This document shows, piece after piece, positions 3,022-25,994 of a stretch of DNA of 64,000 nucleotides. Each line of letters begins with the position of its first letter. Within the stretch, counting starts at the first letter, position 1. A model generated the notes under the pieces. The model had not been told where the DNA came from. It did no database searches and was given only the letters and a program-made list of their open reading frames with translations. The position numbers and the translations under genes were made by a program. The DNA comes from Orobanche coerulescens (taxonomy: Eukaryota; Streptophyta; Magnoliopsida; Lamiales; Orobanchaceae), in contig CM065804.1 in the NCBI GenBank assembly GCA_033398695.1, positions 52,731,501 to 52,795,500 of the forward strand, in the 5' to 3' direction.

Positions 3022-3171
3022 TGTAATACCCGAGATTTTTGATTTGTATTTGGAACTTGTGATATTGTAATTATTGCATTTTGATCTGAATATTATTCTC
3101 CTTATTTCATAATCCGGTATTGTTGAGCGCATGATTTCATGAATGTGATTTAAATTGTGATTCTGCGCATG

Positions 3172-3462: not shown

Positions 3463-3474
3463 ATAACCATTTTC

Positions 3475-3482
3475 TATATATA
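3475..3482 (+). promoter_or_regulatory. TATA box of the Gypsy-1 5' LTR
   Basis: TATATATA follows the last dodecamer by 12 bp. It precedes a pyrimidine-rich stretch where plant LTR transcripts commonly begin; the start site itself is inferred. Confidence 0.6.
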
Positions 3483-4180
3483 GGACATCATCCTTTTTCA
3501 TATTTTCAGACTTTTCACTTCCCACATCCGAATTCTTGAACTTAGAGAGTCACTCTCTTCATCCTAAACACTTCATATCAGCATCCTAGCTCGTGTTGAA
3601 GATTGTAGATCATTGGGGATTGGTGTTCAAGCCTTCGGCGTTGGATTACTTCGAGTTCCTTCGTGTTCTTCGCTACTTTGAGGTAGGTGATTCTTCGCCA
3701 ATATTAGTAGTATTCTGAAGGACGTTTTGATCATGTTTTGGGATTACCTAGTCAGTTAAATTCATAAGTAGTCGAACATCATGTGTTAGAAGGATATTTT
3801 CGATGTTTCGGTACTTATTCATCGTATAAACCATTGAACCTTTTAGTGTTTGAACTCCTAGCATATTTTGAAGCTTCAAACCGATTTGTGACCAGTATAT
3901 GGAGATTTTCAAAGTTCTTATGTCTTTACATAAAGGAATCATACGTTTAGGGACATGTGACGGATTGAACTTAGGATATTCCTTGAAAATCAAGATGAAT
4001 TATGGTGTTGTGATGGTTATGCGAAACCTTGTATCTCGTAGTCGTTTAATCCGTATAGAACTTTCACAAAACCTTATGAGCATGATATGCACGGGGATGA
4101 CATGTATTATCACCATAGAATTCATGAGTACATCACCATTAGATCAAGTTTTCTGCGAGTAGTAATCTGCCATGCACGGT

Positions 4181-4395
4181 TAGCGCACGCTAACATATGT
4201 AAGTTAACGTGCGCTATCGGGAATAAGTTAACGCACGCTACGTTTGGTACGTAACGTACGTTATGTTATCAGTCGAGTCAGTCGGCTGATCAGAGAGAAC
4301 TGTCAGTCCATGGCTAGCGTACGCTAGACTTAGACGATAGCGTACGCTAACAGGCAGGCTTAGCGCACGTTACGTAGAGTACGTAGCGTACGCTA
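4181..4395 (+). promoter_or_regulatory. Second dodecamer array in the Gypsy-1 5' LTR
   Basis: Two tetrads of the same 12-bp motif lie about 700 bp downstream of the TATA box. Starts are 4181, 4205, 4229, 4252, then a 63-bp step to 4315, 4338, 4361, 4384. Variants include TAACGTACGTTA, which is still a perfect palindrome. Confidence 0.7.
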
Positions 4396-4767
4396 AGTGG
4401 TTCAGGCAGATTGCATATTTAGAGCTTTTGGCCATAGGCCGGATTGATAGGAAATCGTTCGACTTGAGATGAATTCTATATCATTTCTTTTATTAAGGTT
4501 CAAGCTTGCTACGTTGATCGAAGGAGGCGGCCTTCGAGTGTGTTGAGATCATGAAGTGTTTCGTTCTTGCCATCTTCGAGGCAAGTGTCGTAATGTGTTA
4601 ATATTGGTATTTTTGAGCATGTGTGTGGTTTATTCATGTTGTTGAACATGAGATTTATTTCGTTGAATTGTCATGATATTCGTTATCTAGTGTTTGTATG
4701 TTCATGTTGATGGACATAGCGATTTGGCATATATGTATGCATGAGTTGCGTTTGTGTATGTTGTGCG

Positions 4768-4935
4768 ATCTATGCTGAGAGCGCTGGATCGGATGTCCAC
4801 CTCGTGTTGGTCCGACGGGATCATCTTGGGATCTAGGCTGAAGGCGCTGGATCATTGGACGGGTTATTTCCACCTCGTGTTGGTCCGACGGGATCATCTT
4901 GGGATCTATGCTGAGGGCGCTGGATCATTGGAATA
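4768..4935 (+). repeat. About 73-bp tandem repeat in the Gypsy-1 5' LTR
   Basis: The block CCACCTCGTGTTGGTCCGAC...GGCGCTGGATCATTGG occurs at 4797 and again at 4870, with a partial copy before them. The 3' LTR has the same duplication near 12050-12183. Confidence 0.8.
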
Positions 4936-5420
4936 CCCTTGCTGTGTTAATGGAATCTTTTGGATTCGCATTATCGGATTCCGGTAGCGGAAGTCCGTGT
5001 GGTGTATCTTGTTATGTATTGTTGATGCATATTTGATTTGTTTAAATGATACTTGTACTAGCATCGTTTTGATAACCCCTTCGGGGGTGGACATTTGTTT
5101 TGATGTTCAGGTAGCCGAGGAGCGGGAAAACGACCGCGATCTGCGATGTGACGATGAAGGGGTTCAGTGATGTTTTTTGTTGTTGGTGATTTGTCTTCTT
5201 GGTTTAATTTCAGTACTTGAGTACGCGTGTCTTATTAATATCATTTCGATATGGTTGTATTAATTAACTCGTTGAACCCGTTGGAACCGGTTTTGTAAAC
5301 TTGAATTTCCGTGGTATTGATGTCTTATATTTACATTTCTTTTATTTAGACTTGTAAATCCTTACTTAAAGGGTTTACGGCACTGTAACTATTCCGAATA
5401 TCTCTGGGTGTTACAGAATA

Positions 5421-5432: not shown

Positions 5433-5660
5433 TAAGATTCATGGATATCTTGGCAGTCGGGTTTTAAGTTGGGTCTGTTTACGTTATTGATTTACGAGTC
5501 GTTCGTAACATCACTGTTCAGCCAAAAGTCGTCATGTGGACCGTGGTTGTAAGTCTCCTAATCTCTTGTACTACCGTTTTACTTAATTCTGTTTTGTGAG
5601 TATTGACGGGCTTTATTTTTGAAAATTTTGTCTTGGATATTGAGAAGTTGTGTTTTCAGT

Positions 5661-6850
5661 ATGTTGAAAGGGGGTCGTGGACGCGGACGTGGAAATATGA
5701 GACAGGAGGATTCCGCAACTACCCCAGAATTATCGGATAGTAGAACCGATTCCCATTCTGGAGGGCAGCAGGGATCGGCGAATGACGACGCAAATCCTAA
5801 CATGCCGGGAGTGCTTCAACAGGTGGTGGATCAAATAAACCAGTTCGCTCAGGTAGTTGACCGCATGCAGACAGCGATGGGACAGCAGCACCACGAGGAT
5901 AACCGGGGAGACAGATGGCTTGCTGAGGTGGTCAAATTGCACCCGCCAAAGTTTGATGGATCTGCTGAGGCACTTACTTGGGATCATTGGCTAAATGAGT
6001 TAGAGAAAATATTCGCGGGTATTAACTGTCCCGAGGACCGGAAGGTTCCCATTGCCCAGTATTTTCTAACTGGGGAGGCCTTTGACTGGTGGGAAGCTAT
6101 TCGGCCCGAGAATCATAATGCGGAGTGGACGGAATTCAAAATAATGATGGAAGCACAGTATTGTCCTCGTCTAGTTAGAGAGGCAAAAATCCGAGAGTTT
6201 TTCTCACCACAGAGTTCGGAAGCAACTGTAACAGACATAATCAAAACTTTTAATCATCAGCTGACTTGTGTCCGATACTTGGTCAGAACGGAGGCAGAAA
6301 AGATTTTTCATTTCGATATGCGAATGAGGCCGGAGATTCAGCAGTACATGTCCGGATTCGAGTGTACTACGTTGCGATAGTATCAAGACAAAGCGCTGGC
6401 CTACGACATGAAAGAGGCGGCGGTGGAGAAATCAGTGGAGGCAAAGAAGCAGAAAGTGACCGTGACTTCTCATAAAACAAGAGTGGTGGGCCCCGCAAGG
6501 GCCAGTCTTCCTTTTATTCGGCTAGGAAACCTCCACATCCTTCTAGAGGTGGAAAGAAGTTCCGGACAACATCAGCCGTTTCGGACGCATCAAAGAAATG
6601 CTACAATTGTGGTCGAGCAGGGCATATTCGACGTGATTGCCCCGCATCTTCTGTGACTTGTTACGATTGTGGGCAAGAAGGGCACCGTGCGGCTTTCTGT
6701 GGAGTTGCTACTAGATCTTTTGGTAATCGCACACCAGCGCCAGTTCCAAAGGAGATAAGTGTGAACCAGACGCAGCAGAGTGGATTTCAGCAGCAAAATA
6801 TTGGGAAGAGATAGACATCCAGTGCTGGGTCTGTTCCTCCGTGCCTGTAC
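5661..6850 (+). pseudogene. Gypsy-1 Gag (broken)
   Basis: This is the structural protein of the element. The start at 5661 gives an N-terminus beginning in an Arg/Gly-rich tract (GGRGRGRGN), shared in style by Gypsy-2 and Gypsy-3; an ATG at 5619 in the same frame is possible but adds 14 unrelated residues. The retrotransposon-gag core follows (FDGSAEALTWDHWLNELEKIF, AFDWWEA). A stop at 6378-6380 breaks the frame, which continues as YQDKALAYDM-like sequence and then shifts. Two CCHC zinc knuckles lie at 6599-6640 (CYNCGRAGHIRRDC) and 6659-6700 (CYDCGQEGHRAAFC), both with all metal ligands. Confidence 0.8.
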
Positions 6851-6853
6851 GAG

Positions 6854-8720
6854 ATGAGGAAATATGACGATCAGAACACTGCTGTTGCATCAGGTACGAT
6901 TCAGATCCTTTTGCAACCAGTTAGTGTCTTATTCGATTCCGGAGCTACACATTCTTTCATATCATTGAACTGTGTTAATCGTTTAAAAATCTCGTGCTTA
7001 TTTGATTGTGAACCATATGTTGTGGGTTTGCCGAGCGGAGAGAGAATTGTGGGAACCCTAGAAACTAGAGATTTTCCAGTGTCTATAGGAGGGAGAGACT
7101 GGCCATCGAATCTTATTGTAGTTGACATTCATGGTAACGATTTAATTCTCGGAGACGATTGGCTCAACTGTTATGGAGCTATTCTGAATTATCGAAAGAG
7201 AGTCATTTCTATTATTGCTGAGGACGGATCTGAACATTTATTCAGAGGATGGAGAAAGGGAAGCTCGAGAAAATTGATCAAAGCGATGAAAGCTGTGAAA
7301 TTACTGAAGCAAGGATGTCATGGACTTTGGTGCTATGTCATGAAGAAAGAAGAAGGAATAGAACTCTCATCTATTCCAGTTGTGAATGAATTTTCAGAGA
7401 TATTCCCTGACGAACTACCTGGGTTACCTCCGCAGAGAGAAGTGGAGTTCACTATCGAATTAGAGCCTGGAGCCGCTCCTATTTCCAGATCACCATACTG
7501 CATGGCGCCAACCGAGATGTATGAACTAAAGAAGCAACTGGAGGAATTATTACAGAAGGGTTATATTCAACCTAGCGTTTCTCCTTGGGGAGCGCCCGTT
7601 CTCTTTGTCCGGAAGAAAGACGGATCCCTCCGACTGTGTATTGATTACAGGGAACTAAACAAAGTGACAATCAAGAACAAGTATCCTATACCTCGGATCG
7701 ATGACTTGTTTGATCAACTGCAAGGAGCAAGGGTATTCTCGAAGATTGACTTGCGATCAGGATACCATCAGTTGAGAATTAAGGAATCGGATATACCGAA
7801 ATCTACTTTCAGATCCCGGCACAGGCATTATGAATTTGTAGTGATGCCATTTGTACTTACCAATGCTCCTGCGGTATTTATGCAATTGATGAATCGGGTA
7901 TTCTTAGAATACTTGGATAAATTCGTGGTCGTCTTCATCGATGACATCTTGATCTATTAGAAAGATACAGAGGAGCATGCCGAGCATTTGCGTGTAGTTT
8001 TGAGCACCTTGAGGAAGGAGCAGCTGTATGCAAAGCTTTCGAAATGTGAGTTCTGGCTTAAGGAAGTAACCTTCCTTGGGCATGTGATATCAGCGGACGG
8101 AGTTTAGGTGGACCTGAAGAAAGTCAAAGCAATCTTAGAATGGGAAGCTCCTAATAACGTGAAAGAAGTCCGGAGTTTCTTAGGACTTGCTGGATATTAT
8201 CGCCGTTTTGTAGAGGGATTTTCCAAAATTGCCCGTCCGCTCACTCAGTTGTTACAGAAAACTCAAAAGTTCACGTGGGATGAGAAATGCCAGGCTGGTT
8301 TTGACGAACTTAAGAGGAGACTAACGACAGCACCTATATTAGCGTTACCAGATGGAACTGATGGATTCATGGTATACAGAGACGCTTCAAATCAGGGTCT
8401 GGGATGTGTACTGATGCAAAAGGATAAGGTGATTGCTTATGCCTGTCGGCAGTTGAAACCGTACGAGGTAAATTACCCAACTCATGATCTGAAGTTAGCA
8501 GCTGTGGTCTTTGCCTTGAAAATTTGGCGACATTACTTATACGGTACTCACTGTCAGATCTTTACATATCATAAAAGCCTCAAGTACATTTTCAGTCAGA
8601 AAGAATTAAACATGAGGCAAAGAAGGTGGTTGGAATTGATCAAGGATTACGACTTGGAAATTCTCTATCATCCGGGTAAAGCAAACGTTGTAGCCGATGC
8701 ATTGAGCCGTAAACCTGTTT
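6854..8720 (+). pseudogene. Gypsy-1 protease, reverse transcriptase and RNase H (nonsense mutations)
   Basis: The protease active site DSG is at 6935-6943 ([11 protein letters not shown]). A linker leads to the reverse transcriptase: [12 protein letters not shown] near 7415, [20 protein letters not shown] near 7630, the [14 protein letters not shown] motif near 7738, and the catalytic FIDD at 7934-7945. TAG stops follow at 7958-7960 and 8105-8107 in an otherwise continuous frame. RNase H follows ([12 protein letters not shown] near 8380, ALSRK near 8700) and keeps most landmarks; the position that is TDHKS in Gypsy-3 reads TYHKS here. The enzyme copies element RNA to DNA from the tRNA primer. 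Two isolated nonsense codons suggest recent inactivation. Confidence 0.88.
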
Positions 8721-10286
8721 CTCTTCGAGTGTTGGAAGCACTTACGTCCCAAACCAGCATTCAACGAGAACTGATCCACGAAGGGATTGAAGTATGGGCA
8801 CCAGAAATCCAAGGGCAACTATATGTGATGGAACTGACTTCATCATTAGTAGAGGAAATCAAATCTAAGCAGTTGAACGATTATCTGATCCTTTGGTTAT
8901 GTGACGAAGTAAAGAAAGGAAAGGCCCCAGGATTCGTGATACAAGATGATGGAGTTCTGAGATTTCAGAGTCGACTTTGCGTTCCCGATAATGATGAATT
9001 GTGATGAATTGAGACGGACAATTCTGAAGGAAGCTCACAGCGCGCCCTATTCTATTCACCCGGGCAGCAGTAAGATGTATAAGGATCTAAAACAAAACTA
9101 CTGGTGGGGGAATATGAAGAAGGATGTAGCAGAGTACGTTTCGAAGTGTTTGACTTGTCAGCAGGTTAGGATTGAACATCAGCGACCTGCCGGAATGTTA
9201 AAGCCGCTTCCGATCCCTGAGTGGAAGTGGGAGGACATCTCGATGGATTTCATCACCAGTATGCCAAGGACCAAGACGGGAATGAACATGATTTGGGTTG
9301 TAGTTGATCGACTAACCAAGTCGGCTCATTTCCTAGGAATTAAAGATACTTGGGGACCCGAGAAATTGGCGCGAGTATTTATTGCAGAGATAGTCAGATT
9401 GCATGGGACGCCGAAGACCATTATTTCAGATCGAGATGGTCGCTTCGTGTCGCACTTCTGGAAAGCAGTTCACAGGGCTTTGCGGACTGAGCTCAATTTT
9501 AGCACAGCTTATCATCCCCAAACGGACGGTCAGTCCGAAAGGACTATTCAAATAGTAGAAGACATGCTTAGAGCTTGTGCGCTGGATTGGTCAACTGATT
9601 GGGAAGTTCACTTGCCATTGATTGAATTCACCTATAACAATAGTTGGCATGCTTCTATTAAGAGGGCACCATTTGAAGCTTTGTACGGGAGAAGATGCCG
9701 ATCACCCTTGTGTTGGGATGATTCCTCGGACTTGATCGGGACGGAACCGGAATTGATAGTTCAGACTCAAGAGAAGATAGCTTTGATTCGAGAAAGACTG
9801 TTGACTGCCCAGAGTCGACAGAAGTCTTATGCAGACGTACGTCGTTGCCCTCTAGAGTTCGACATTGGGGACCACGTACTATTGAAGGTGTCTCCTACAC
9901 GAGGAATTTTCCGTTTTGGGAGGAAAGGCAAGCTAAGTCCAAGATATATCGGACCATTCGAGATCCTCGAGAGAGTTGGAGATTTAGCATACAGGTTGGC
10001 CTTACCGCCATCGCTGAGTCACGTTCACAATGTGTTTCACGTATCCCAATTGTGGAAGTATGTACCAGATCCCAGTCATATCATTGAGTTTGATGAGATC
10101 GAGATAGCTAATGATGGCATCTTCGAGGAGAGACCAATTAATATACTTGAGAGTCGGATCAAACAATTGAGGAATAAACCAATACCCTTGGTTAAAGTAC
10201 AACGGTCACGGCACGGAGTTGAAGAGGCCACTTGGGAAACGGAGGACAGTATGAAGACTAGATATCCAGAGTTGTTTTCATCTTAA
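8721..10286 (+). pseudogene. Gypsy-1 integrase with chromodomain-like tail (frameshifted)
   Basis: The integrase has the HHCC zinc domain (HPGSSKMYKDLKQNYWW to CLTCQQV near 9055-9165), then the core with MDFI near 9244, SDRDGRF near 9428 and QSERTIQ near 9532; all three acidic catalytic residues are present. GPY/F-type sequence (KLSPRYIGPFEIL near 9930) precedes a tail with ILESRIKQLRNK and EEATWETED, ending at the stop 10284-10286. The tail resembles the group of chromodomains that lack part of the aromatic cage. A 10-bp duplication at 8992-9011 shifts the frame between RNase H and integrase. Confidence 0.88.
8992..9011 (+). repeat. 10-bp tandem duplication breaking the Gypsy-1 pol frame
   Basis: TGATGAATTG occurs twice in direct succession (8992-9001 and 9002-9011). 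One extra unit shifts the pol frame by one base; the older frame ends at a TGA right there. Confidence 0.9.
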
Positions 10287-10321: not shown

Positions 10322-12668
10322 TGTAATACCCGAGATTTCTGATTTGTATTTGGAACTTGTGATATTGTAATTATTGCATTTTGATCTGAGTATTATTCTC
10401 CTTATTTCATAATCCGGTATTGTTGAGCGCATGATTTCATGAATGTGATTTAAATTGTGATTCTGCGCATGTAGCGCACGCTATCGACTAAGTGTAGCAT
10501 ACGCTAACTTGGATCCATAGCGCACGTTGAAAAGGAACCTTAGCGCACGCTATACGTGGTCAATATGATTGAGACGTGCTGGTAGGTGAGATCAGGCCGG
10601 GGATCTTGGTCGGATTATGTCGGGATGAACCTGGACGGCTTTCGGGAAAAAGCCAAGTCAACGCGTTAGCGCACGCTACTCATATGAGGATAGCGCACGC
10701 TAAAAACTGAGTACAGTGAAATCAGTAGAGTTTCAAATAGCCGTTAGCGCACGCTATGAATATGGACTAGCGCGTGCTAATAACCATTTTCTATATATAG
10801 GACATCATCCTTTTTCATATTTTCAGACTTTTCACTTCCCACATCCGAATTCTTGAACTTAGAGAGTCACTCTCTTCATCCTAAACACTTCATATCAGCA
10901 TCCTAGCTCGTGTTGAAGATTGTAGATCATTGGGGATTTGTGTTCAAGCCTTCGGCGTTGGATTACTTCGAGTTCCTTCGTGTTCTTCGCTACTTTGAGG
11001 TAGGTGATTCTTCGCCAATATTAGTAGTATTCTGAAGGACGTTTTGATCATGTTTTGGGATTACCTAGTCAGTTAAATTCATAAGTAGTCTAACATCATG
11101 TGTTAGAAGGATATTTTCGATGTTTCGGTACTTATTCAACGTATAAACCATTGAACCTTTTAGTGTTTGAACTCCTAGCATATTTTGAAGCTTCAAACCG
11201 ATTTGTGACCAGTATATGGAGATTTTCAAAGTTCTTATGTCTTTACATAAAGGAATCATACGTTTAGGGACATGTGACGGATTGAACTTAGGATATTCCT
11301 TGAAAATCAAGATGAATTATGGTGTTGTGATGGTTATGCGAAACCTTGTATCTCATAGTCGTTTAATACGTATAGAACTTTCACAAAACCTTATGAGCAT
11401 GATATGCACGGGGATGACAAGTATTATCACCATAGAATTCATGAGTTCATCACCATTAGATCGAGTTTTCTGCCAGTAGTAATCTGCCATGCACGGTTAG
11501 CGCACGCTAACATATGTAAGTTAACGTGCACTATCGGGAATAAGTTAACGCACGCTACGTTTGGTACATAACGTACGTTATGTTATCAGTCGAGTCAATC
11601 GGATGATCAGAGAGAACTGTCAGTCCATGGCTAGCGTACGCTAGACTTAGACGATAGCGTACGCTAACAGGCAGGCTTAGCGCACGTTAAGTAGAGTACA
11701 TAGCGTACGCTAAGTGGTTCAGGCAGATTGCATATTTAGAGCTTTTGGTCGTAGGCCGGATTGATAGGCAATCGTTCGACTTGAGATGAATTCTATATCA
11801 TTTCTTTTGTTAAGGTTCGAGCTTGCTACGTTGATCGAAGGAGGCGGCCTTCGAGTGTGTTGAGATCATTGAAGTGTTTCGTTCTTGCCATCTTCGAGGC
11901 AAGTGTCGTAATGTGTTAATATTGGTATTTTTGAGCATGTGTGTGGTTTATTCATGTTGTTGAACATGAGATTTATTTCGTTGAATTGTCATGATATTCG
12001 TTATTTGTGTATGTTGTGCGATCTATGCTGAGGGCGCTGGATCGGATGTCCACCTCGTGTTGGTCCGACGGGATCATCTTGGGATCTAGGCTGAGGGCGC
12101 TGGATCATTAGACGGGTTATTTCCACCTCGTGTTGGTCCGACGGGATCATCTTGGGATCTATGCTGAGGGCGCTGGATCATTGGAATACCCTTGCTGTGT
12201 TAATGGAATCTTTTGGATTCGCATTATCGGATTCTGGTAGCGGAAGTCCGTGTGGTGTATCTTGTTATGTATTGTTGATGCATATTTGATTTGTTTAAAT
12301 GATACTTGTACTAGCATCGTTTTGCTAACCCCTTCGGGGGTGGACATTTGTTTTGATGTTCAGGTAGCCGAGGAGCAGGGAAAGCGACCACGATCTGGAT
12401 GTGACGACGAAGGGGTTCAGTGATGTTTGTTGTTGTTGGTGATTTGTCTTCTTGGTTTAATTTCAGTACTCGAGTACGCGTGTCTTATTAATATCATTTC
12501 GATATGGTTATATTAATTAACTCGTTGAACCCGTTGGAACCGGTTTTGTAAACTTGAATTTCCATGGTATTGATGTCTTATATTTACATTTCTTTTATTT
12601 AGCCTTGTAAATCCTTACTTAAAGGCTTTACGGCGCTGTAACTATTCTGAATATCTCAGGGTGTTACA
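10322..12668 (+). repeat. Gypsy-1 3' LTR
   Basis: It is the partner of 3022-5415, with the same ends. Dodecamer starts are 10472, 10495, 10518, 10541; 10667, 10691; 10745, 10768; the last is followed after 12 bp by a TATA box at 10792. The second array runs 11498-11712. Relative to the 5' LTR it lacks about 70 bp after position 12000, bounded by a short GTTTGT-like repeat, and carries one additional dodecamer unit. Confidence 0.95.
10472..10799 (+). promoter_or_regulatory. Dodecamer array plus TATA box in the Gypsy-1 3' LTR
   Basis: A tetrad at exact 23-bp steps, a pair at 24, a 54-bp step, a pair at 23, then TATATATA starting 24 bp after the last motif start. The terminal 54-23-24 spacing is the same as in Gypsy-2 and nearly the same as in Gypsy-3 (53-23-24). 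Confidence 0.75.
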
Positions 12669-15851: not shown

Positions 15852-16080
15852 TGTAATACCCGGTTGTAATTCAGTAATTATCATTCAGTATTTATCATTC
15901 AGTAATTGATACTCAGTAATTTCACTCATTATTGATCATTTGTCACTCATATTCAATCATGGTATTCATCATTCAGAGTAATTGTATCGTGTATCAATCG
16001 TCATTCGTCACTAATCTAATTGGAGTTTCGTGCCGTGTTTATCATCGTTGTCTTTTTCGTTGTGGGTTGTGCGTGAGGAG

Positions 16081-16648
16081 TAGCGCACGCTACGTACTCT
16101 TTTTAGCGTACGCTAATTGAGTACAGGTAGCGCACGCTACCACTCAGCATTAGTGCACGCTAATGTTACCCTGGCTGCAGTCCAGAAGGTACTGGACTGC
16201 AAGTGAGTTATTAGTAGCGCACGCTACGAGTGGTAAGTAGCGCGCGCTAGTGGGTTGTAGTAGCGCACGCTAAATATGTGAAGTAGCGCGCGCTAAGGAC
16301 GGATCAGGTTGAGTCCAGTGGCTACTGGACTGCACTGGATTAATTCATAGCGCACGCTATGAGTGATATTTAGCGTACGCAAGCGGTGTAGTAGCGTACG
16401 CTACTTGTTGGTTGTAGCGCACACTACCGAAGTCAGATCAGAGGACAGACAATTTCTGGATTCCAGTACTGGGCATCACATAATTCGTTAGCGCACGCTA
16501 ACAATGGGTTTTAACGCACGCTAGTGGTATGGCCGTAGCGCACGCTACAAAAAGGTACGTAACGCGCGCTACCGTGTTCGGACAGTGGGTACTGGACTAC
16601 CCAAATTACCCGTTAGCGCACGCTACGCATAAGGGCTAGCGCACGCTA
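16081..16648 (+). promoter_or_regulatory. Eighteen-copy phased dodecamer array in the Gypsy-2 5' LTR
   Basis: Motif starts: 16081, 16104, 16128, 16151; 16215, 16238, 16261, 16284; 16348, 16371, 16392, 16415; 16489, 16512, 16536, 16560; 16614, 16637. Steps within groups are 23 or 24 (one is 21, where a motif has lost two bases). Steps between groups are 64, 64, 74 and 54. Inter-group spacers hold GTCCAG/CTGGAC inverted repeats. The last copy ends 12 bp before TATATATT. This is the clearest copy of the pattern in the window. Confidence 0.8.
16176..16201 (+). repeat. Inverted repeat TGCAGTCCAG...CTGGACTGCA between dodecamer tetrads
   Basis: Ten-base perfect arms are separated by six bases. Related GTCCAG...CTGGAC pairs lie in the next spacer (16313-16330) and, weaker, near 16591, and in Gypsy-3 at 34628-34651. 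Confidence 0.8.
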
Positions 16649-16660
16649 ACCTGGATTGGC

Positions 16661-16668
16661 TATATATT
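16661..16668 (+). promoter_or_regulatory. TATA box of the Gypsy-2 5' LTR
   Basis: TATATATT starts 24 bp after the last dodecamer start. The 3' LTR has the equivalent at 24329-24336. Confidence 0.6.
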
Positions 16669-18314
16669 GGACGATTGCTTTGAGTTCGTCATTTTATCAT
16701 CCTTTCTCATTCCCTCATTGGTTTCGGGCGATTTCGGGCATTTTGGAGAGTTCTCTTCGAGCTTCTATCATCCATCATCATCTTCAAGTCTTTGAGTTGG
16801 ATTATCATCACTTCATCATCTCCTTAACATCGAATCAAAGGTCTTAATCTCTTGGATCTAGAATTTCGGATTTTTGGGTTTTTCCTTCCGATTTCTTCGT
16901 GTAAGCTTGGATTATCATTGGAATATGTTAGATATGGATTATCTACCTTGGATAAGTATATTCTTACGGATTTAATGGTTATTTTCGGAATTATTTCAAG
17001 AACCCTTGGGTTTGACTTCGGTTAATTGGGGATTTTCCGATTGATGTAGTTGTAATCTCGAATTGTGGATTCCTAATGGATTATTGATATCATTGAGGTG
17101 TTTTGTTAGTTCGATATACTCATTTTGGTGTTGGTTTCGATATATTCGGGATTGGATATTTTCGAAGTCGTATGGTTGGTTACGTATTCATTAGAATGCC
17201 CCTATGAGTTTGATTATCGTTGTTTCGACCTTTGGGTTAGTCGTGTTTTGTTGCTTGATACGTGTATTGAACGGTTGTTGGTAATTGTTGTTATTCAAGG
17301 TTGTTCGAGCGACCGATATTTCACTTAGGATGTTGTTCGTGGACGGACATTCTTCATCGGTATTGAGTAAGTTGATTCTTACTCGGTTAAAAGGATATTC
17401 ATTCCTTTTGGTTGTTGATCATTCATAATCATAACTCATTCATCATTGTATTAATCATTTTGAGACTTGTAATTGTCGGATAATCATTTCATTAGCGAGG
17501 AACGGCGGTTCCAATCATTTCATTGAAAGCTATCAATCACTTCATTATCATTTTCATATTGGTGAGTCATTCTTGACTTTGTCGGATTATTATTATTCAT
17601 TGATATTCATTATGGTCATTCTTGTTCATATGACCTTCTGGGTTCATATTGCGTGGCGGGTGCGGATGTGTGGAATTTTTAGTCGGGCACATGATGGCCA
17701 TGTATTGGGAGTGATACATTGGGTGTGCACACGTGCGATTACCTCGTGAGACTAATTAGGTACAAGGACGAGTGGGTCCGGTCATCCGTCTTGTACACTT
17801 GCACAAAACACTACGGGCGTACTATGATGCTCCTCTTGGCGTAATTCATAACTAAGGACATTTCATAACTTGATTAAATCATGTTTGTGTATTTTCAACC
17901 CTTGAGGATTGTTGTTACGTATGGCGGCCCGTTGGGGATTTTGTTTTAGTCACGGCAAGGCAAAGGCACGGGAAGAGCATGTTGGCGGCGAGTCCCGATG
18001 ATACTAGTATGGGGGCCAGTCATTCCGTTTATTTCGATCATTTGATCATTTCCGTCATTTGTATTTTCCGCTGCAAATTCCGTTTGAGATGCTTATTTAT
18101 TCAGGGTGGTGTATTTTATCTCCATATAAAATATACTAGTATTCTGTTTTGTCCTGGTGTAATGTACTTAAACTCCTCATCGGAGTACTTGGTAATATAA
18201 TGTAGTTCGGTACTACAATTATATTATTTAATTCATCATTTTCATTTGCCTGGTGGGTCCCAGTCGGGGATTCACGGCACTGTAATATCCGCCTAGTTTG
18301 GGGTGTTACAGAGT

Positions 18315-18778: not shown

Positions 18779-20130
18779 ATGGAGAGGGCAAGAAGAGGAC
18801 GTGGAGGACGAGGCCGTGGAGCGGGCCGAATACCGAGAGCTCGTGTGAATACACGTGCAAACGCGAGAAATAATGCTAATTCATCGAGCAGCGACGCTGC
18901 CACTCATTCACCTGGACGCGATCATTCACTATCTGGGAGTCTTACCCGAGACACGGCTCAGTCAGAGGGTGTGCGAGTTGACCCACTCGCTTTCATGCAG
19001 GGCGTGATGGCCCAAATGACCCAGATGGCACAGCTGATGGAGACGATGCATAATTCCGTCAATCATAATCAACAGGATCCTCCGCCGCCACCTCAGAGGC
19101 AAGAGAGGAATGTGAGTAATATCATCGGCGATATCTCTCGCCAGAGGCCACCTACTTTTGAGGGCTCGTTTGAGCCGGCAGATATCATTCATTGGCTCAA
19201 GCATTTCGAGAAGTTGTTTGCTATGGTAGAGTGTCCCGAAGGACACAAAGTTTCTGTTGCGGCTTACTACCTGGGTAAGAGCGCTCATTCTTGGTGGTTG
19301 TCGTTGAAGCCCACCGAAGGATCATGTACTTGGGATCAGTTCAAGACTCTCATGATGAAGAGGTATTATCCATCCCCACTCAGGGAGGCTAAGCTATCAG
19401 AATTACTCACCCCCGACCTCTCAGCAGACGAGGATGTTCTCGCCATTGCCGAGAAGTTTCAGGAACTTCTTCCGTTCGCCTCATCTATCATTCATTCCGA
19501 GGCAGATAAGATTAAGTATTTGAAGAAGTGAAACCCCGTATGAGACTTCAGTTGCTTAATCATAATTGCACCACGTTGGCTGAATTCATTGAGAAAGCTC
19601 TTACCTATGAGCTTACTGCTAAGGAGATTGCTAAGCAGCAACCTTCGTCTGCTAGCAAGAAATCGAAGAATCGTAACCAGTCTGAAGGCGGTCAGACAAC
19701 CTTCAAGAAACCCCGTGCGGGCTCTGCCTTTTCTGAGCGACCTCCTGTGTCATCTAAACCCGCGGAATCTCAGTCACGAGCGGCCAGTTCGGCCATCACC
19801 TGTTATAACTGTGGGGATCTTGGTCATGTCAGCACCAAGTGTCCGAGACAGTCTGTCACGTGTCATAACTGTGGAATTGTGGGGCACAAGGCCCGTTTTT
19901 GCCATAGGGAGTCCAAACCTACTCAGACGTCATCTCAGGCCCCGAAGCAGTCAGCCGTTCAGAATCAGGCCATGCAATCAGCGTCGTTTAAAACGACAAG
20001 AGCGACAAAATGTGGAGCTTTTAGCCATAAGACGCGTGTGTACGGTGCCGGGACTAGCAAGCCCCCGAATTATGAGTTAATGAAGACCCATGATCCCGAG
20101 GACCGAATGATCTCAGGTACACTCGATATT
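18779..20130 (+). pseudogene. Gypsy-2 Gag (one frame break)
   Basis: The start ATG at 18779 opens a strongly basic Arg/Gly N-terminus (ARRGRGGRGRGAGRIPRARV). The gag core follows: FEGSFEPADIIHWLKHFEKL, SAHSWWLSLKP and RYYPSPLREAKLSELL. The first frame stops at about 19531, where CTGAAACCC-like sequence seems shortened, and the protein continues in the next frame from 19528 (KPRMRLQLLNHNC). Two CCHC zinc knuckles lie at 19801-19842 (CYNCGDLGHVSTKC) and 19861-19902 (CHNCGIVGHKARFC), both complete. The break coincides with a CTG site, so it may be a sequence error. Confidence 0.82.
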
Positions 20131-20496
20131 CTATCTCAACCTGTGTGTACCCTTTTTGATACCGTGCATCGCATTCATTCATTTCCGAGTCATGTTTGAG
20201 TAGACTACTTGGGTAGTGCTACTAGTTGTGAGCCTTATGTCATTGGTCTACCCGATGGTAGACGAATTATCGTGTCGGGAGATTGAGTTGTCGATTCGAT
20301 TTCATGGTCGTGTATGGCCAGCGGACCTAATCGTGGTAGATTTGCCGAGAGGCAGCGTCATCTTGGGTATTGATTGGATGGATCGTCATGATGCCATCAT
20401 TAGTGTCCGTAAGCGTATGATCACTATCATTTTGAGACGATGGGGTTGAATGTGTGTTTCAGGAGGTAATCCCTACATTGCAGTAAGGTCATTAAT
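20131..20496 (+). pseudogene. Gypsy-2 protease (frame broken)
   Basis: The region aligns with the Gypsy-1 protease: LFDT...HSFxS near 20152-20190, then LSIRFHGRVWPADLIVVDLPRGSVILGIDWM near 20285-20380. The active-site triplet reads Asp-Thr followed by a shifted frame near 20160, and another shift occurs near 20432. Both sit where Gypsy-1 or pattern logic indicates a CTG or CAG. Without those changes the domain would be ordinary, so true loss of function is uncertain. Confidence 0.7.
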
Positions 20497-21714
20497 TTGA
20501 TGAAAGCAGTGAAATTACTCAATCAGGGGTGTGTTGGTTATTGGTGCTATATGACCAAAACCGAGAAATCATCAGTAATGTTGACGGATATTCCGGTAGT
20601 GAGGGAATATGCCGATGTTTTTCCAGACGAGTTACCTGGTTTGCCTCCACAGAGGGATGTGGAATTCACGATCGAGTTGGAGCCTGGTACGTCCCCGATA
20701 TCGAAGGCACCGTACCGGATGGCCCCGACCGAAATGCAGGAATTAAAGAATCAACTTGAGGAGTTATTCGAGAAAGGTTATATCCGACCGAGTGCGTCCC
20801 GATGGGGAGCACCAGCGTTGTTTGTCAAGAAGAAGGATGGTTCATTTCGCTTATGTATTGATTATCGGGAGTTGAACAGGGTGACGATCAAGAATAAGTA
20901 TCCTTTACCCCGTATTGATGATCTCTTAGATCAACTTCAGGGAGCTTCAGTATTTTCCAAGATCGACTTAAGATCTGGATATCATCAGTTGCGAATCCGA
21001 GAGTCGGACATCGCGAGGACGGCGTTTCGAACACGCTATGGTCATTATGAGTTTGTGGTTATGCCGTTCGGATTGACTAACGCACCTGCGGTATTCATGG
21101 AGTTAATGAATCGGGTTTTCATCGACTTTTTGGATCAATTTGTTGTTGTCTTCATCGATGACATTTTGATTTATTCTCGTGACCGAGAGGAACACGAGTT
21201 TCACCTTCCTCAAGTACTCGACGTGTTGAGACGAGAACAACTTTATGGGAAGTTTTCTAAATGTGAGTTCTGGATGTCCGAAGTGACGTTTCTCGGACAC
21301 GTAACTTCATCAGACGGAGTTCGTGTCGATCCTCAGAAGACGGAGGCTATTCGTGATTGGCTACCTCCAAAGAATGTTAAGGAAATCCGAAGCTTCCTCG
21401 GATTAGCAGGTTATTATCGGCGATTTGTGGAAGGATTTTCTAAAATCGCTCAACCTTTGACGAACCTTTTGCGGAAGGATAAGAAATACACGTGGTCCGA
21501 CGCGTGTCAACGGAGTTTTGAGGAACTCAAGAGCCGGTTAATGTCAGCACATGTACTTTCCTTGCCGCAGGGGACGGAAGGATTTGTGGTCTATAGTGAT
21601 GCGTCCGGACAGGGTCTCGGATGTGTGCTCATGCAGAACGGGAAGGTTATTGCCTATGCTTCACGGCAATTGAGACCTTACGAGGTTAATTATCCGACCA
21701 CGACACGGAGCTAG
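20497..21714 (+). CDS. Gypsy-2 reverse transcriptase and start of RNase H
   Basis: This is one open frame of 405 codons. It contains [32 protein letters not shown], the [14 protein letters not shown] motif, [20 protein letters not shown], catalytic FIDD at 21151-21162, [20 protein letters not shown], and the RNase H opening [15 protein letters not shown] near 21592. It ends in a frameshift at about 21703 in the RNase H domain. The start at 20497 is only where the frame opens; the natural protein is a polyprotein joined to gag and protease. No inactivating residue change was seen. Confidence 0.85.
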
Positions 21715-21825
21715 CGGTAGTGGTGTTCGCTTTGAAGATTTGGCGTCATTATCTTTATGGCGTTACATCGAGATATTCACCGATCATAAGAGTTTAAAGT
21801 ATATATTTACTCGAAGGAGTTAAAT
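21715..21825 (+). pseudogene. Gypsy-2 RNase H middle segment (two shifts)
   Basis: The segment matches Gypsy-1 and Gypsy-3 RNase H ([11 protein letters not shown] and [10 protein letters not shown]) but in changing frames, with apparent one- or two-base losses near 21766 and 21812. At the latter Gypsy-1 and Gypsy-3 have GTCAGAA and this copy has CTCGAA. Confidence 0.75.
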
Positions 21826-23487
21826 ATGCGGCAGAGGCAGTGGTTGGAATTAATCAAAGATTATGATATCGAGATCCTTTACCACCGAGGCAAGGCGAAC
21901 GTTGTCGCCGACGCCTTGAGTCGTAAGTCCGTTCGGGAAGCAGATGCTTGCTCGTTTAACGGTTCGAAGGAGCTTCAACAGAATTCCTTAGACCCGAGAT
22001 CGAGTGCAGCCCGGCGAGTTCAGGGAAAACTTTGTATGTTAGAAATTTCATCGTCACTCGAGGAGGCAATCCGAGAGAATCAGAGTTCAGACCCTTCATT
22101 GTTGCGCATCCGTGAGGATGTGACTCAGGGGAAAGTCCCTAGATTTGTGGTCCACGAGGATGGACTTTTGCGGTTTAAGAATCGGTTGTGCGTACCGGCG
22201 AATGACGAGTTGAAAAACTCGATTTTGAAAGAAGTTCATGCTACCCCTTATTCTGTTCATCCGGGGTCTAGCAAGATGTACAAGGACTTGAGACAAAATT
22301 ACTGGTGGAGTAATATGAAGCGAGAAGTCGCAGAATTTGTTTCGAGATGCTTAACCTGTCAACAAGTTAAGATTGAACATCAGCGACCGGCGGGTATGCT
22401 AAAACCTCTTCCTATTCCCGAGTGGAAGTGGGAAGACATTTCTATGGATTTCATCACGAGTTTGCCAACGAGTCGTCGTGGTATGAATACGATCTGGGTG
22501 ATCGTGGACCGCTTAACCAAATCAGCTCATTTCCTTGAGATCAAGGATACGTGGGGTCCCGAGAGACTTGCCCAGCTTTTCATCAAAGAGATAGTGAGAC
22601 TTCACGGTACTCCAAAAAGTATCGTTTCCGATCGTGACGGACGGTTTGTGTCTCATTTTTGGAAATCAGTTCATCGCGCTATGGGAACTCAACTTAATCT
22701 CAGTACCGCTTTTCATCCTCAGTCCGACGGGCAATCAGAGAGGACTATTCAGACATTAGAGGACATGTTGAGGGCATGCGTCCTCGATTGGAAAGACGAT
22801 TGGGAAGCCCAACTACCATTGATCGAGTTCACGTATAATAATAGTTGGCATGATTCGATCAAGATGGCACCTTACGAGGCCTTGTATGGTCGTCGTTTTC
22901 GATCTCCATTGTGTTGGGACGACTTATCAGAATCAATCGGCACCGAGCCCGATATGCTTATAGCCGCCCGTGAGAAGGTAGCTTTGATCAGAAATCGTTT
23001 GTTGACCGCTCAGAGTCGACAAAAATCATATGCAGATAACCGTAGTCGACCATTAGAGTTCGAGGCTGGTGACCATGTGTTGGTCAAGGTATCCCCGAGT
23101 CGTGGTATCTTCCGTTTTGGGAAGAGGGGAAAGTTGAGTCCGAGATTCATTGGACCGTTCGAGATTTTGGATCGAGTAGGCGAGTTAGCTTATCGATTGG
23201 CTTTACCTCCGGCGTTAAGCCGAATCCATAATGTGTTTCACGTCTCTCAGTTGCGGAAGTATGTTGCCGACCCGAGTCACATACTTCAGTTCGATGAAAT
23301 CGAGATCGCCGACGATCATTCATATGAGGAGCATCCTATACGAGTTTTAGAGCGGCGAATCAAGCAGTTGAGGAATAAGACGATTCCTTTGGTTAAAATT
23401 CAGTGGTCTAGACACGGAGTCGAAGAGGCTACGTGGGAAACCGAGGATAGTATGCGGGAGAGTTATCCCGAGTTGTTTGACCCTTAG
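21826..23487 (+). CDS. Gypsy-2 RNase H end, integrase and chromodomain-like tail
   Basis: An open frame of 553 codons covers the RNase H end ([13 protein letters not shown]), the HHCC zinc domain (HPGSSKMYKDLRQNYWW, CLTCQQV), the integrase core with MDFI, SDRDGRF and QSERTIQ (all three acidic residues kept), the GPY/F-like segment KLSPRFIGPFEIL, and the tail with VLERRIKQLRNK and EEATWETED. The stop is at 23485-23487, 22 bp before the polypurine tract. Integrase joins element DNA to the genome; chromodomain tails of chromoviruses are known to bias insertion toward heterochromatin, which fits the nest seen here. Confidence 0.88.
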   Translation: MRQRQWLELIKDYDIEILYHRGKANVVADALSRKSVREADACSFNGSKELQQNSLDPRSSAARRVQGKLCMLEISSSLEEAIRENQSSDPSLLRIREDVTQGKVPRFVVHEDGLLRFKNRLCVPANDELKNSILKEVHATPYSVHPGSSKMYKDLRQNYWWSNMKREVAEFVSRCLTCQQVKIEHQRPAGMLKPLPIPEWKWEDISMDFITSLPTSRRGMNTIWVIVDRLTKSAHFLEIKDTWGPERLAQLFIKEIVRLHGTPKSIVSDRDGRFVSHFWKSVHRAMGTQLNLSTAFHPQSDGQSERTIQTLEDMLRACVLDWKDDWEAQLPLIEFTYNNSWHDSIKMAPYEALYGRRFRSPLCWDDLSESIGTEPDMLIAAREKVALIRNRLLTAQSRQKSYADNRSRPLEFEAGDHVLVKVSPSRGIFRFGKRGKLSPRFIGPFEILDRVGELAYRLALPPALSRIHNVFHVSQLRKYVADPSHILQFDEIEIADDHSYEEHPIRVLERRIKQLRNKTIPLVKIQWSRHGVEEATWETEDSMRESYPELFDP

Positions 23488-23521: not shown

Positions 23522-25994
23522 TGTAATACCCGGTTGTAATTCAGTAATTATCATTCAGTATTTATCATTCAGTAATTGATACTCAGTAATTTCACTCATT
23601 ATTGATCATTTGTCACTCATATTCAATCATGGTATTCATCATTCAGAGTAATTGTATCGTGTATCAATCGTCATTCGTCACTAATCTAATTGGAGTTTCG
23701 TGTCGTGTTTATCATCGTTGTCTTTTTCGTTGTGGGCTGTGCATGAGGAGTAGCGCACGCTACGTACTCTTTTTAGCGTACGCTAATTGAGTACAGGTAG
23801 CGCATGCTACCACTCAGCATTAGCGCACGCTAATGTTACCCTGGCTGCAATCCAGAAAGTACTGGACTGCAGGTGAGTTATTAGTAGCGCACGCTACGAG
23901 TGGTAAGTAGCGCGCGCTAGTGGGTTGTAGTAGCGCACGCTAAATATGTGAAGTAGCGCGCGCTAAGGACGGATCAGGTTGAGTCCAGTGGCTCTTTGAT
24001 CGCCTTCGATTAATTCATAGCGCACGCTATGAGTGATATTTAGCGTACGCAAGCGGTGTAGTAGCGTACACTACTTGTTGGTTGTAGCGCACGCTACGAA
24101 GTCGAATCGAGAGGACAGGCGGTTTACGGATTCCGATCGGGCATCACATAATTCGTTAGCGCACGCTAACAATGGGTTTTAACGCACGCTAGTGGTATGG
24201 CCGTAGTGCACGCTACAAAAAGGTACGTAGCGCGTGCTACCGTGTTCGGACAGTGGGTACTGGACTACCTAAATTACCCGTTAGCGCACGCTACGCATAA
24301 GGGCTAGCGCACGCTAACCTGGATTGGCTATATATTGGACAGTTATCCTGTGTTCGTCATTTTATCATCCTTTCTCATTCCCTCATCGGTTTCGGGCGAT
24401 TTCGGGTATTTTGGAGAGTTCTCTTCGAGCTTCTATCATCCATCATCATCTTCAAGTCTTTGAGTTGGATTATCATCACTTCATCATCTCCTTAACATCG
24501 AATCAAAGGTATTAATCTCTTGGATCTAGAATTTCGGATCTTTGGGTTTTTCCTTCCGATTTCTTCGTGTAAGCTTGGATTATCATTGGAATATGTTAGA
24601 TATGGATTATCTACCTTGGATAAGTATATTCTTACGGATTTAATGGTTATTTTCGGAATTATTTCAAGAACCCTTGGGGTTAACTTCGGTTAATTGGGGA
24701 TTTTCCGATTGATGTAGTTGTAATCTCGAACTGTGGATTCCTAATGGATTATTGATATCATTGAGGTGTTTGTTAGTTCGATATACTCATTTTGGTGTTG
24801 GTTTCGATATATTCGGGATTAGATATTTTCGAAGTCGTATGGTTGGTTACGTATTCGTTAGAATGCCCCTATGAGTTTGATTATCGTTGTTTCGACCTTT
24901 GGGTTAGTCGTGTTTTGTTGCTTGATACGTGTATTGAACGGTTGTTGGTAATTGTTGTTATTCAAGGTTGTTCGAGCGACCGATATTTCACTTAGGACGT
25001 TGTTCGTGGACGGACATTCTTCATCGGTATTGAGTAAGTTGATTCTTACTCGGTTAAAAGGATATTCATTCCTTTTGGTTGTTGATCATTCATAATCATA
25101 ACTCATTCATCATTGTATTAATCATTTTGAGACTTGTAATTGTCGGATAATCATTTCATTAGCGAGGAACGGCAGTTCCAATCATTTCATTGAAAGCTAT
25201 CAATCACTTCATTATCATTTTCATATTGGTGAGTCATTCTTGACTTTGTCGGATTATTATTATTCATTGATATTCATTATGGTCATTCTTGTTCATATGA
25301 CCTTCTGGGTTCATATTGCGTGGCCGGGTGCGGATGTGTGGAATTTTTAGTCGGGCACATGATGGCCATGTATTGGGAGTGATATATTGGACTGTGCACA
25401 CGGTAACGATTACCTCCGTGAGACTAATTAGGTACAAGGACGGGTGGGTCCGGTCATCCGTCTTGTACACTTGCACAGAACACTACGGGCGTACTATGAT
25501 GCTCCTCTTCAGCGTAATTCATAACTAAGGACATTTCATAACTTCAGTTAAATAATGTTTGTGTATTTTCAACCCTTGAGGATTGTTGTTATGTGTAACT
25601 GACCCCGTTGGGGGATTTTGTTTTCAGGTCACGGCAAGGCAAAGGCACGGGAAGAGCATGTTGACGGCGACGAGTCCCAGTGATACTAGTAGGGGGCCCC
25701 AGTCATTCCGTTTATTTCAGTCATTTCAGTCATTTCCGTCATTTGTATTTTCCGCTGCAAATTCCGTTTGAGATGCTTATTTATTCAGGGTGGTGTATTT
25801 TATCTCCATATAAAATATACTAGTATTCTGTTTTGTCCTGGTGTAATGTACTTAAACTCCTCATCGGAGTACTTGGTAATATAATGTGGTTCGGTACTAC
25901 AATTATATTATTTAATTCATCATTTTCATTTTCCTGGTGGGTCCCAGTCGGGGATTCACGGCACTGTAATATCCGCCTAGTTTGGGGTGTTACA
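23522..25994 (+). repeat. Gypsy-2 3' LTR
   Basis: It is the partner of 15852-18310. The dodecamer array starts at 23751 and its last copy is 24305-24316, again 12 bp before TATATATT (24329). The regions 23990-24020 and 24100-24150 differ from the 5' LTR almost only where the 5' LTR has CAG or CTG. From 25380 to 25740 the relation is reversed and this copy keeps CAG/CTG. Confidence 0.95.

What the first reader, a model, noticed from the sequence alone, without database searches (positions are those of the whole stretch)
16081..16668. Phased tetrads of a 12-bp palindrome placed exactly 12 bp before the TATA box in three diverged gypsy LTR families
Seen directly: TAGCGCACGCTA and variants occur 18 times in the Gypsy-2 5' LTR, in groups of four at 23-24 bp steps, with 64-bp steps between the first groups. 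In all five gypsy LTRs here (3172-3482, 10472-10799, 16081-16668, 23751-24336, 34527-34956) the last copy ends 12 bp before TATA, and the final spacing is 54-23-24 (Gypsy-1 3' LTR and Gypsy-2) or 53-23-24 (Gypsy-3). Spacer sequence is not conserved between elements but spacing is, and most copies keep two CpGs despite the usual CpG loss in methylated repeats. Inference: a cooperative binding array for a dimeric factor, on one DNA face or in nucleosome-free register, driving LTR transcription or marking the element. Period near small-RNA length (23-24) may be coincidence. I know of no described plant LTR promoter with this layout.
Basis: partly seen in the sequence, partly recalled or inferred. 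Interest (0 to 1): 0.88.

Follow-up and report, generated by a model that had tools for sequence, protein, structure and literature searches.

The report
Phased palindrome arrays in retrotransposon promoters
A large plant genome holds over a million copies of one short palindrome, many of them set at fixed steps in front of the start signal of jumping-gene families, which looks like a shared switch that these elements keep in order to be copied.

Summary
The window's five gypsy LTRs carry 74 copies of TAGCGYRCGCTA (one mismatch allowed) against 0.09 expected; in all five the last copy ends 12 bp before TATA. The 3.65-Gb host genome, probably Lamiales, holds 1,309,842 exact copies against 108 for the reversed pattern, 404,618 exact pairs at 23-24 bp steps, and 87,384 matches exactly 11-12 bp before TATAWA. 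Thirty arrays fall into 19 LTR families. Perfect-arm copies always have a pyrimidine-purine centre (157 of 157), and it is directional. Related subfamilies keep the motif (2-4% divergence) while spacers drift 17-27%. A second dialect, TTACGYRCGTAA, occurs at the same steps in related LTRs.

Best reading: a promoter-proximal operator array for a sequence-specific, probably dimeric factor, selected for element propagation. The factor is unidentified. Not supported: "one DNA face" at 10.0-10.5 bp per turn and the CpG-retention argument. Precedent: Sirevirus palindromic boxes upstream of TATA. New: another superfamily, another palindrome, the fixed register, the dialects, the scale.

The parts
3022..5415 (+). 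5' LTR of element 1 (TGTAATACCC...GTGTTACA); element 1 = 3022-12668 with 5-bp flanking repeat GGTTA
3172..3462 (+). promoter-proximal array of element 1, 7 copies (<=2 mismatches), TATA box at 3475 (gap 12)
4181..4395 (+). second, downstream block of 8 copies (tetrad, 63-bp step, tetrad); no TATA at 12 bp
10322..12668 (+). 3' LTR of element 1
10472..10779 (+). promoter-proximal array of element 1 3' LTR, 8 copies, TATA at 10792 (gap 12)
11498..11712 (+). downstream block of element 1 3' LTR, 8 copies
15852..18310 (+). 5' LTR of element 2; element 2 = 15852-25994 with 5-bp flanking repeat TGAAC
16081..16648 (+). array of 18 copies, groups 4-4-4-4-2
16180..16197 (+). second dyad GTCCAG-N6-CTGGAC at the centre of the first 64-bp step
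16313..16330 (+). second dyad at the centre of the second 64-bp step
16661..16668 (+). TATA box, starts 24 bp after the start of the last copy (same register as the array steps)
23522..25994 (+). 3' LTR of element 2
23751..24316 (+). array of 18 copies; TATA at 24329 (gap 12)
34345..36226 (+). 3' LTR of element 3 (5' LTR not found in the window)
34527..34936 (+). array of 13 copies (<=2 mismatches); TATA at 34949 (gap 12)
5619..10286 (+). gag-pol pieces of element 1 (Retrotrans_gag, RVP_2, RVT_1, Integrase_H2C2, SH3_Tf2-1 in the three ORFs scanned): Ty3/gypsy
18779..23487 (+). gag-pol pieces of element 2 (Retrotrans_gag, RVT_1, RT_RNaseH_2, Integrase_H2C2, SH3_Tf2-1 in the three ORFs scanned; protease part not scanned)
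33245..34309 (+). 3' pol piece of element 3 (SH3_Tf2-1), 72-73% identical to elements 1 and 2

Best explanation
The arrays are the upstream activating part of the LTR (U3) promoter of a large clan of plant Ty3/gypsy chromovirus elements, probably Del/Tekay. Each 12-bp quasi-palindrome KTAGCGYRCGCTAM is a binding site for one sequence-specific, probably dimeric factor. Sites are stacked mostly as pairs and tetrads at 23-24 bp, and the last one lies one further step from TATA, so that TATA sits where the next copy would start. Shown here: the sites, register, TATA distance, directional YR centre, conservation between related subfamilies against drifting spacers, decay of motif CpGs at the ordinary rate after insertion, and a second dialect (TTACGYRCGTAA) in related LTRs. 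Inferred: that a protein binds, that it activates transcription (through contact with the TATA complex or by keeping the promoter unmethylated), that it is supplied in trans by the host or another element, and that its specificity split into two dialects.
For: Genome-wide 1,309,842 exact sites against 108 for the reversed control; 404,618 exact pairs at N11-12, control 0. Of 159,253 site-N1-30-TATAWA matches (control 7), 87,384 (55%) fall in the two gap classes 11-12 (control 0). Among TAG-type upstream arrays fetched without regard to TATA, 10 of 14 have the 11-12 bp gap (5 of 5 in the window; L001, both L016, L017, L025 yes; L028 21 bp; L007, L021, L022 none). 30 arrays form 19 families; in one array per family 122 of 210 steps are 23-24 bp, and groups of 1, 2, 3, 4 occur 7, 34, 6, 34 times. 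Centre YR in 157 of 157 perfect-arm copies, flanks K/M in 115 and 111 of 157; sense-strand CA:TG 151:18, 17 of 18 families, while arm CpG changes show no such strand bias (G>A 8, C>T 13), Fisher 4e-7. Motif divergence between element-2-type subfamilies 27/1297 (non-CpG) and 30/758 (CpG) against 485/2930 and 101/381 in spacers. The nine ORFs of 150 aa or more in elements 1 and 2 all lie in the gag-pol span (six of them scanned).
Against: No binding, expression or methylation data. In the TTA dialect the distance to TATA is 14-19 bp in the four arrays where one was found, so the fixed distance is not universal; L028 (TAG) has 21 bp. L025, which was not the array counted for its family, has a run of five copies (six with three mismatches), so four is not a strict ceiling. 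The YR centre has exceptions: four of 18 copies with two arm mismatches and the TTA site TTACGGCCGTAA in both L012 LTRs. Element 1, L025 and L028 have a second block downstream of TATA, which a simple upstream promoter does not explain. L014, L020 and L026 have related pol pieces but no motif in their 10 kb (their LTRs may lie outside). Long RNA hairpins can form from the element-2 array (z -6.66). Only NAC and VOZ sites were checked against papers; no motif database was at hand.
Confidence: 0.72

Rival explanations
1. Anti-silencing operator: the bound factor removes or blocks DNA methylation of the LTR rather than activating transcription directly, as VANC does for VANDAL transposons. The two dialects would be cis/trans co-evolution.
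For: VANC targets are short motifs in tandem in non-coding parts of TEs that differ between related TEs (PMC5735166, abstract and passages). The same two properties are seen here.
Against: VANC is encoded by its own element; here the ORFs of 150 aa or more in elements 1 and 2 all lie in the gag-pol span, and the interiors of three pol-less LTR families gave no Pfam match above cut-off in nine ORFs. The TATA register points to transcription. Methylation could not be tested.
Confidence: 0.12
2. Target of a host repressor or silencing factor; copies persist because they also serve the element, or because the host factor recognises what the element cannot lose.
For: Dialect change between related LTRs could be escape.
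Against: Motif kept between propagating subfamilies much better than spacers, and present in up to 18 copies per array; a pure liability should be lost.
Confidence: 0.06
3. RNA structure element: the palindromes pair with each other in the RNA and act in packaging, siRNA generation or RNA stability.
For: Element 2 array folds far better than shuffles (z -6.66). An excess of small RNAs maps to palindrome clusters of maize Sireviruses (as cited in PMC10760457).
Against: Shuffling only the spacers leaves the energy within the null in elements 3 and 1 (14 of 40 and 11 of 40 as low), though not in element 2 (0 of 40), so in two of three arrays structure follows from the palindromes alone. The directional centre and the TATA register are not needed for pairing; two CA-centre copies mispair there (inference).
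Confidence: 0.07
4. Local DNA shape (alternating purine-pyrimidine GCGYRCGC, Z-DNA-prone) rather than a protein site.
For: The centre of perfect-arm TAG copies is always YR, which keeps the alternation.
Against: The outer TA...TA and flanking K/M are conserved although outside the alternating core; the dialect TTACGYRCGTAA changes the arms in a defined way; phasing to TATA is unexplained.
Confidence: 0.03

Closest known systems
Sirevirus (Ty1/copia) repeated motif boxes, Bousios et al. 2010 (PMC2829016)
   Same: Palindromic, CpG-bearing motif, at least 8 copies per element, clustered in the LTR upstream of TATA and kept while the rest of the LTR diverges; near-identical motifs in distant families.
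   Different: Copia, core CGG-CCG; copies also in the linker of env-bearing members; [quoted passage not shown] Here gypsy, core CGYRCG, 23-24 bp steps, mostly pairs and tetrads, TATA in register, two dialects in one genome.
VANDAL/VANC anti-silencing system (PMC5735166)
   Same: Short recognised motif multiplied in non-coding parts of TEs and changed between related TEs.
   Different: DNA transposons that encode the factor; motifs YAGTATTAY and AGTTGTCC/AGTTGTAC; the word palindrome does not occur in the main text. No factor gene found in the elements looked at here.
Del/Tekay LTRs with plastic 5' CpG islands (PMC4029996)
   Same: Same probable lineage (LTR start TGTAATACCC against the common U3 att TGTAACACCC, LTR 1.9-2.5 kb here); a variable CpG-rich stretch in the 5' part of the LTR in grasses.
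   Different: That paper found no CpG island in eudicot Del LTRs; the words palindrome and tandem do not occur in its main text.
Plant LTR enhancer boxes such as those of Tnt1 and ONSEN (Tnt1 box I only as mentioned in PMC2829016; the rest recalled)
   Same: Repeated cis sites in U3 that recruit host factors.
   Different: Recalled, not tested: few copies, other sequences, stress factors known; no such shared register.

Membership tests
Sirevirus repeated-motif (RM) boxes | carried by Ty1/copia Sireviruses | tested here: not met
   Elements 1-3 have gypsy pol; no TWRCGYRCGYWA match in the window's copia block
Sirevirus repeated-motif (RM) boxes | CGG-CCG core palindrome | tested here: not met
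   Core is CGYRCG with TAG or TTA arms
Sirevirus repeated-motif (RM) boxes | many palindromic copies clustered upstream of the LTR TATA box | tested here: met
Del/Tekay chromovirus | Ty3/gypsy domains, RT before integrase | tested here: met
   RVT_1 then Integrase_H2C2 and SH3_Tf2-1 in elements 1 and 2
Del/Tekay chromovirus | C-terminal chromodomain | tested here: inconclusive
   PF00385 not reported for the integrase ORFs of elements 1-3 at E 0.001; some relatives list it
Del/Tekay chromovirus | U3 end TGTAACACCC | tested here: inconclusive
   All five LTRs start TGTAATACCC, one difference (paper)
Del/Tekay chromovirus | RT tree placement | not tested
   No lineage-labelled reference set at hand
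VANC-type anti-silencing | recognised motif multiplied in non-coding TE DNA and changed between relatives | tested here: met
   Motif arrays and two dialects; that the motif is recognised is inferred
VANC-type anti-silencing | factor encoded by the element family | tested here: not met
   All nine ORFs >=150 aa of elements 1-2 lie in the gag-pol span, six scanned; nine ORFs of pol-less interiors: no Pfam match above cut-off, weak zinc-knuckle/zinc-finger in L054. Shorter or spliced genes not excluded
VANC-type anti-silencing | loss of DNA methylation at targets | not testable with these tools
   No methylation data
NAC palindromic site | CGT N7-8 ACG | tested here: not met
   The site has no such spacing; CG-centre copies contain no CGT on either strand (spacing from PMC4081100; copies)

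The most novel reading that the evidence does not exclude
One trans-acting factor family controls most Del-type elements of this genome through a million-odd operators, many laid on a fixed 23-24 bp ruler that includes TATA. Its specificity has split into two dialects (TAG and TTA arms), and arrays of homologous LTRs have been recoded site by site to follow it. That would be cis/trans co-evolution of the VANC kind for LTR retrotransposons, shared by autonomous and pol-less families.
Probability: 0.25. Interest if true: 0.88.

Novelty: new variant of a known kind. Interest (0 to 1): 0.72.

Why it matters
If the arrays are operators, a single DNA-binding activity would help to explain how many retrotransposon families (19 in the sample here) amplified in one 3.65-Gb plant genome. 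The 12-bp site, the strict ruler and the two dialects give a clear handle for finding the factor by one-step DNA pull-down. It would suggest that gypsy and copia elements arrived separately at palindromic CpG-bearing arrays in front of TATA, which makes the open question of why plant LTRs need such arrays (activation, methylation escape or siRNA conflict) testable. A host factor with this specificity would have a very large share of its genomic sites in transposable elements.

Tried and rejected
Rejected: (1) chance or simple tandem repeat. Spacers within arrays are barely more alike than shuffled (0.298 against 0.255), and steps come in classes. (2) One-face helical phasing at 10.0-10.5 bp per turn; at an assumed 11.0 bp the positions do cluster (0.58 and 0.52), so the test depends on the helical repeat. 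(3) CpG protection in fixed copies. Motif non-CpG sites in LTR pairs do change less (2 of 394 against 128 of 5598, p 0.012), but the alignment of non-motif parts is noisier, so this is not leaned on. (4) NAC or VOZ palindromes: half-sites look similar in the TTA dialect, but the published palindromic spacing does not fit. (5) Strand-biased hypermutation as the cause of the CA centre: arm CpGs show no such bias. (6) A viral-collection match (L009): a G+C-rich contig with two copies 23 bp apart; four neighbouring ORFs have no Pfam match; treated as unrelated. (7) Site homology between dialects is not recovered when the motifs are masked before alignment (L012b and L025: 0 shared, 3 near; the close pair L025-L034: 12 of 13). 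The recoding claim therefore rests on the alignable LTR 5' parts and on a short step shared by both dialects, and is held as inference.

Left open: genome-wide counts of TTACGYRCGTAA, of TAGCGNNCGCTA, and of pairs at N1-30 did not complete.

Papers: sections 9 and 11, abstract and passages of PMC2829016; abstract/outline and passages of PMC5735166; passages of PMC10760457, PMC4081100 and PMC4029996; all others only as search listings. Bousios et al. 2016 (Genome Res) is not held; known here only as cited in PMC10760457.

On checking this report against the calls I mended: the ceiling of four copies per group, the exceptions to the YR centre, the dyad count, the number of pol-less families, the ORFs scanned, and the word 'random' for the 20 stretches.

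Full report
WHAT IS THERE. The window (C4:52731501-52795500 of an unnamed 3,646-Mb genome) holds two full-length gypsy elements with 5-bp flanking repeats (3022-12668 with GGTTA; 15852-25994 with TGAAC) and the 3' end of a third (3' LTR 34345-36226). The pol pieces scanned carry gypsy domains (RVP_2 in element 1; RVT_1, Integrase_H2C2, SH3_Tf2-1) and are 72-79% identical in the integrase part. A P450 fragment at 62222-62782 is nearest to Lamiales proteins (best full-coverage hit Striga, 77%; Olea best by E-value), so the host is probably a Lamiales plant; this is a lead, not an identification. All 64 matches to TWRCGYRCGYWA in the window lie in the five LTRs; the copia block at 38-58 kb has none.

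THE OBSERVATION. The distance from the start of the last copy to TATA is 24 bp, the same as an array step, so TATA occupies the place of the next copy.

GENOME-WIDE. TAGCGYRCGCTA: 1,309,842 exact copies; the same pattern read backwards 108. Pairs with an 11-12 bp gap: 404,618; reversed control 0. Site-N11-12-TATAWA: 43,668 + 43,716 on the two strands; reversed control 0. With N1-30 the counts are 73,026 + 86,227, control 5 + 2, so 55% of the matches fall in 2 of 30 gap classes. The tool warns that counts of repeats can be lower bounds; with variable gaps one place may count more than once, and the two strands differ. Twenty 10-kb stretches at round coordinates of C1-C3 and C5-C9, chosen blind to content, hold TAG-arm arrays in 6 of 20 (L016, L017, L021, L022, L025, L028). 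L014, L020 and L026 have related pol pieces without any motif in their 10 kb.

FAMILIES AND ARCHITECTURE. Thirty arrays were clustered with motifs masked: 20 taken from the list (first 7 Mb of C1, hence with TATA at 11-12 bp by selection) and 10 others. They form 19 LTR families at 80% over 150 bp. The TATA gap of the 20 is selected, the steps are not: in one array per family 122 of 210 steps are 23-24 bp, and a second mode lies at 62-67 (21 of 210). Group sizes 1, 2, 3, 4 occur 7, 34, 6, 34 times in that set and none is larger; but L025, not the array counted for its family, has a run of five copies, six with three mismatches. Among TAG-type upstream arrays fetched without regard to TATA, 10 of 14 have the 11-12 bp gap (window 5 of 5; L001, L016 twice, L017, L025; misses L028 with 21 bp, and L007, L021, L022 with none found; the mixed L013 left out). 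In element-2-type LTRs the 64-bp steps hold a second dyad, GTCCAG-N6-CTGGAC, at their exact centre (dyad and gap centre both 26.0) in all nine such steps of element 2, L016 and L022, with 0-1 mismatch in eight and 3 in the ninth; of 1300 shuffled gaps 1072 gave 4 or 5 mismatches. Steps of other lengths have it off centre or not at all.

THE SITE. Perfect-arm TAG copies have a pyrimidine-purine centre in 157 of 157 cases, and the flanks extend the dyad (G/T before 115 of 157, A/C after 111 of 157). Exceptions: four of 18 copies with two arm mismatches and TTACGGCCGTAA of the other dialect in both L012 LTRs. The centre is directional: CA 151, TG 18 on the LTR sense strand, 17 of 18 families leaning to CA, while CpG changes in the arms do not lean that way (G>A 8, C>T 13; Fisher 4e-7). 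So the site is a quasi-palindrome with polarity.

SELECTION. Between element-2-type subfamilies (five arrays, ten pairs pooled, not independent) motif positions differ in 27 of 1297 (non-CpG) and 30 of 758 (CpG), spacers in 485 of 2930 and 101 of 381. Between the two LTRs of one element, that is since insertion, motif CpGs changed in 17 of 218 and other CpGs in 54 of 564 (three pairs). For CpGs, then, conservation is a property of propagating lineages, not of fixed copies: what one expects of a cis site needed for the element's own multiplication. Non-CpG motif positions changed less than others also between LTR pairs (2 of 394 against 128 of 5598, p 0.012), which this reading does not predict; noisier alignment outside the motifs may explain it.

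TWO DIALECTS. In the 200 kb, perfect palindromes of the form xxxCGYRCGxxx have arms TAG (76), TTA (22) and ATC (1). TTA arrays (L010, L012, L013, short ones in L023 and L028) use 23-bp steps too. L012 (TTA) and L025, L017, L034 (TAG) have alignable LTR 5' parts, and a motif-aware alignment puts 10-11 sites in the same columns, 8-10 of them in different dialects. With motifs masked this homology is not recovered for the distant pairs. It rests on the alignable ends and on a short step of 16-19 bp in the last group of both dialects (L012 18 and 19, L010 18, L013 18; L025 18, L017 16, L034 18); only 2 of 210 steps in the family set are under 20 bp. In TTA arrays TATA lies 14-19 bp away in the four where one was found.

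WHO SUPPLIES THE FACTOR. The nine ORFs of 150 aa or more in elements 1 and 2 all lie in the gag-pol span (six scanned). Of seven interiors examined, L052 and L053 have gag-pol, while L050, L051, L054, L055 and L025 show none in the stretch fetched; these five stand for three LTR families (L050 with L025, L051 with L055, L054), and nested insertions are possible. Non-autonomous families therefore seem to share the array with autonomous ones, and the factor most likely comes from the host or from some other element. Its identity is unknown. Published NAC palindromes (CGT N7-8 ACG, PMC4081100) do not fit.

OTHER READINGS. RNA folding of the element-2 array is strong (z -6.66); in elements 1 and 3 the fold follows from the palindromes alone, in element 2 the spacers add to it. 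Helical phasing on one face is not supported at 10.0-10.5 bp per turn, though positions cluster at an assumed 11.0. Z-DNA explains the YR centre but not the conserved outer bases, the dialects or the register.

COMPARISON. The nearest described system is the Sirevirus RM box (PMC2829016; sections 9 and 11, abstract and passages seen): 13 copia elements with 8-32 palindromic copies each (3-14 in the 3' LTR, mostly in its upper half), bounding CpG islands shortly before TATA. It works alike but is not the same family: superfamily and core both fail (membership table). The nearest evolutionary analogue is VANC/VANDAL (PMC5735166, abstract and passages): recognised motifs multiplied in tandem and changed between related TEs; but there the element encodes the factor. 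Del LTRs were surveyed in ten angiosperms (PMC4029996, passages) with no CpG island in eudicots and without the words palindrome or tandem in the main text. Searches for the motif itself (one paper, on let-7 in brain and retina), for LTR palindromes and chromoviruses, for Sirevirus palindromes, for LTR motifs with anti-silencing, for Tekay with palindromes, for Ty3-gypsy LTR motifs upstream of TATA, for Lamiales LTR motifs and for the TTA core with retrotransposons (one paper, on oat markers) listed no title or abstract opening that describes this array; the lists were capped and most subscription papers are not in the library.

VERDICT. Real, strongly non-random, shared by many families, and best read as a selfish promoter operator. 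New variant of a known kind; interest 0.72. The dialect switch is the part that could raise it.

Noticed in passing
4181-4395 and 11498-11712; also L025 4072-4153 and L028: A second block of the motif some 690-860 bp downstream of the last upstream copy, in the part of the LTR that would be transcribed; in element 1 and, less complete, in L028 it shows groups separated by 63 bp, without a TATA at 12 bp.
   Followed up: partly
L012 rc 2096-2638 and 7295-7865; L010, L013, L023, L028: Arrays of TTACGYRCGTAA in place of TAGCGYRCGCTA with 23-bp steps; TATA 14-19 bp away in the four arrays where one was found.
   Followed up: partly
L050, L051, L054, L055, L025: Array-bearing elements whose fetched interiors have no gag or pol match: probably large non-autonomous families (three LTR families).
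   Followed up: partly
E1, L017, L025, L028 LTRs: A W-box-like AAGTCAAC (reverse GTTGACTT) lies shortly before a motif group in one set of families (seen output).
   Followed up: no
TATA regions of elements 1-3 and of L016, L017, L025, L028: A GGACA, GGGACA or similar just after TATA recurs in different families: possible start-site element.
   Followed up: no
L009 12696-12730: A G+C-rich viral contig has two copies of the motif 23 bp apart upstream of a minus-strand ORF; perhaps a bacterial operator, unrelated.
   Followed up: partly
38698-57849: Several copia-type copies with 86-97% repeats and pol pieces in fragments, free of the motif.
   Followed up: no
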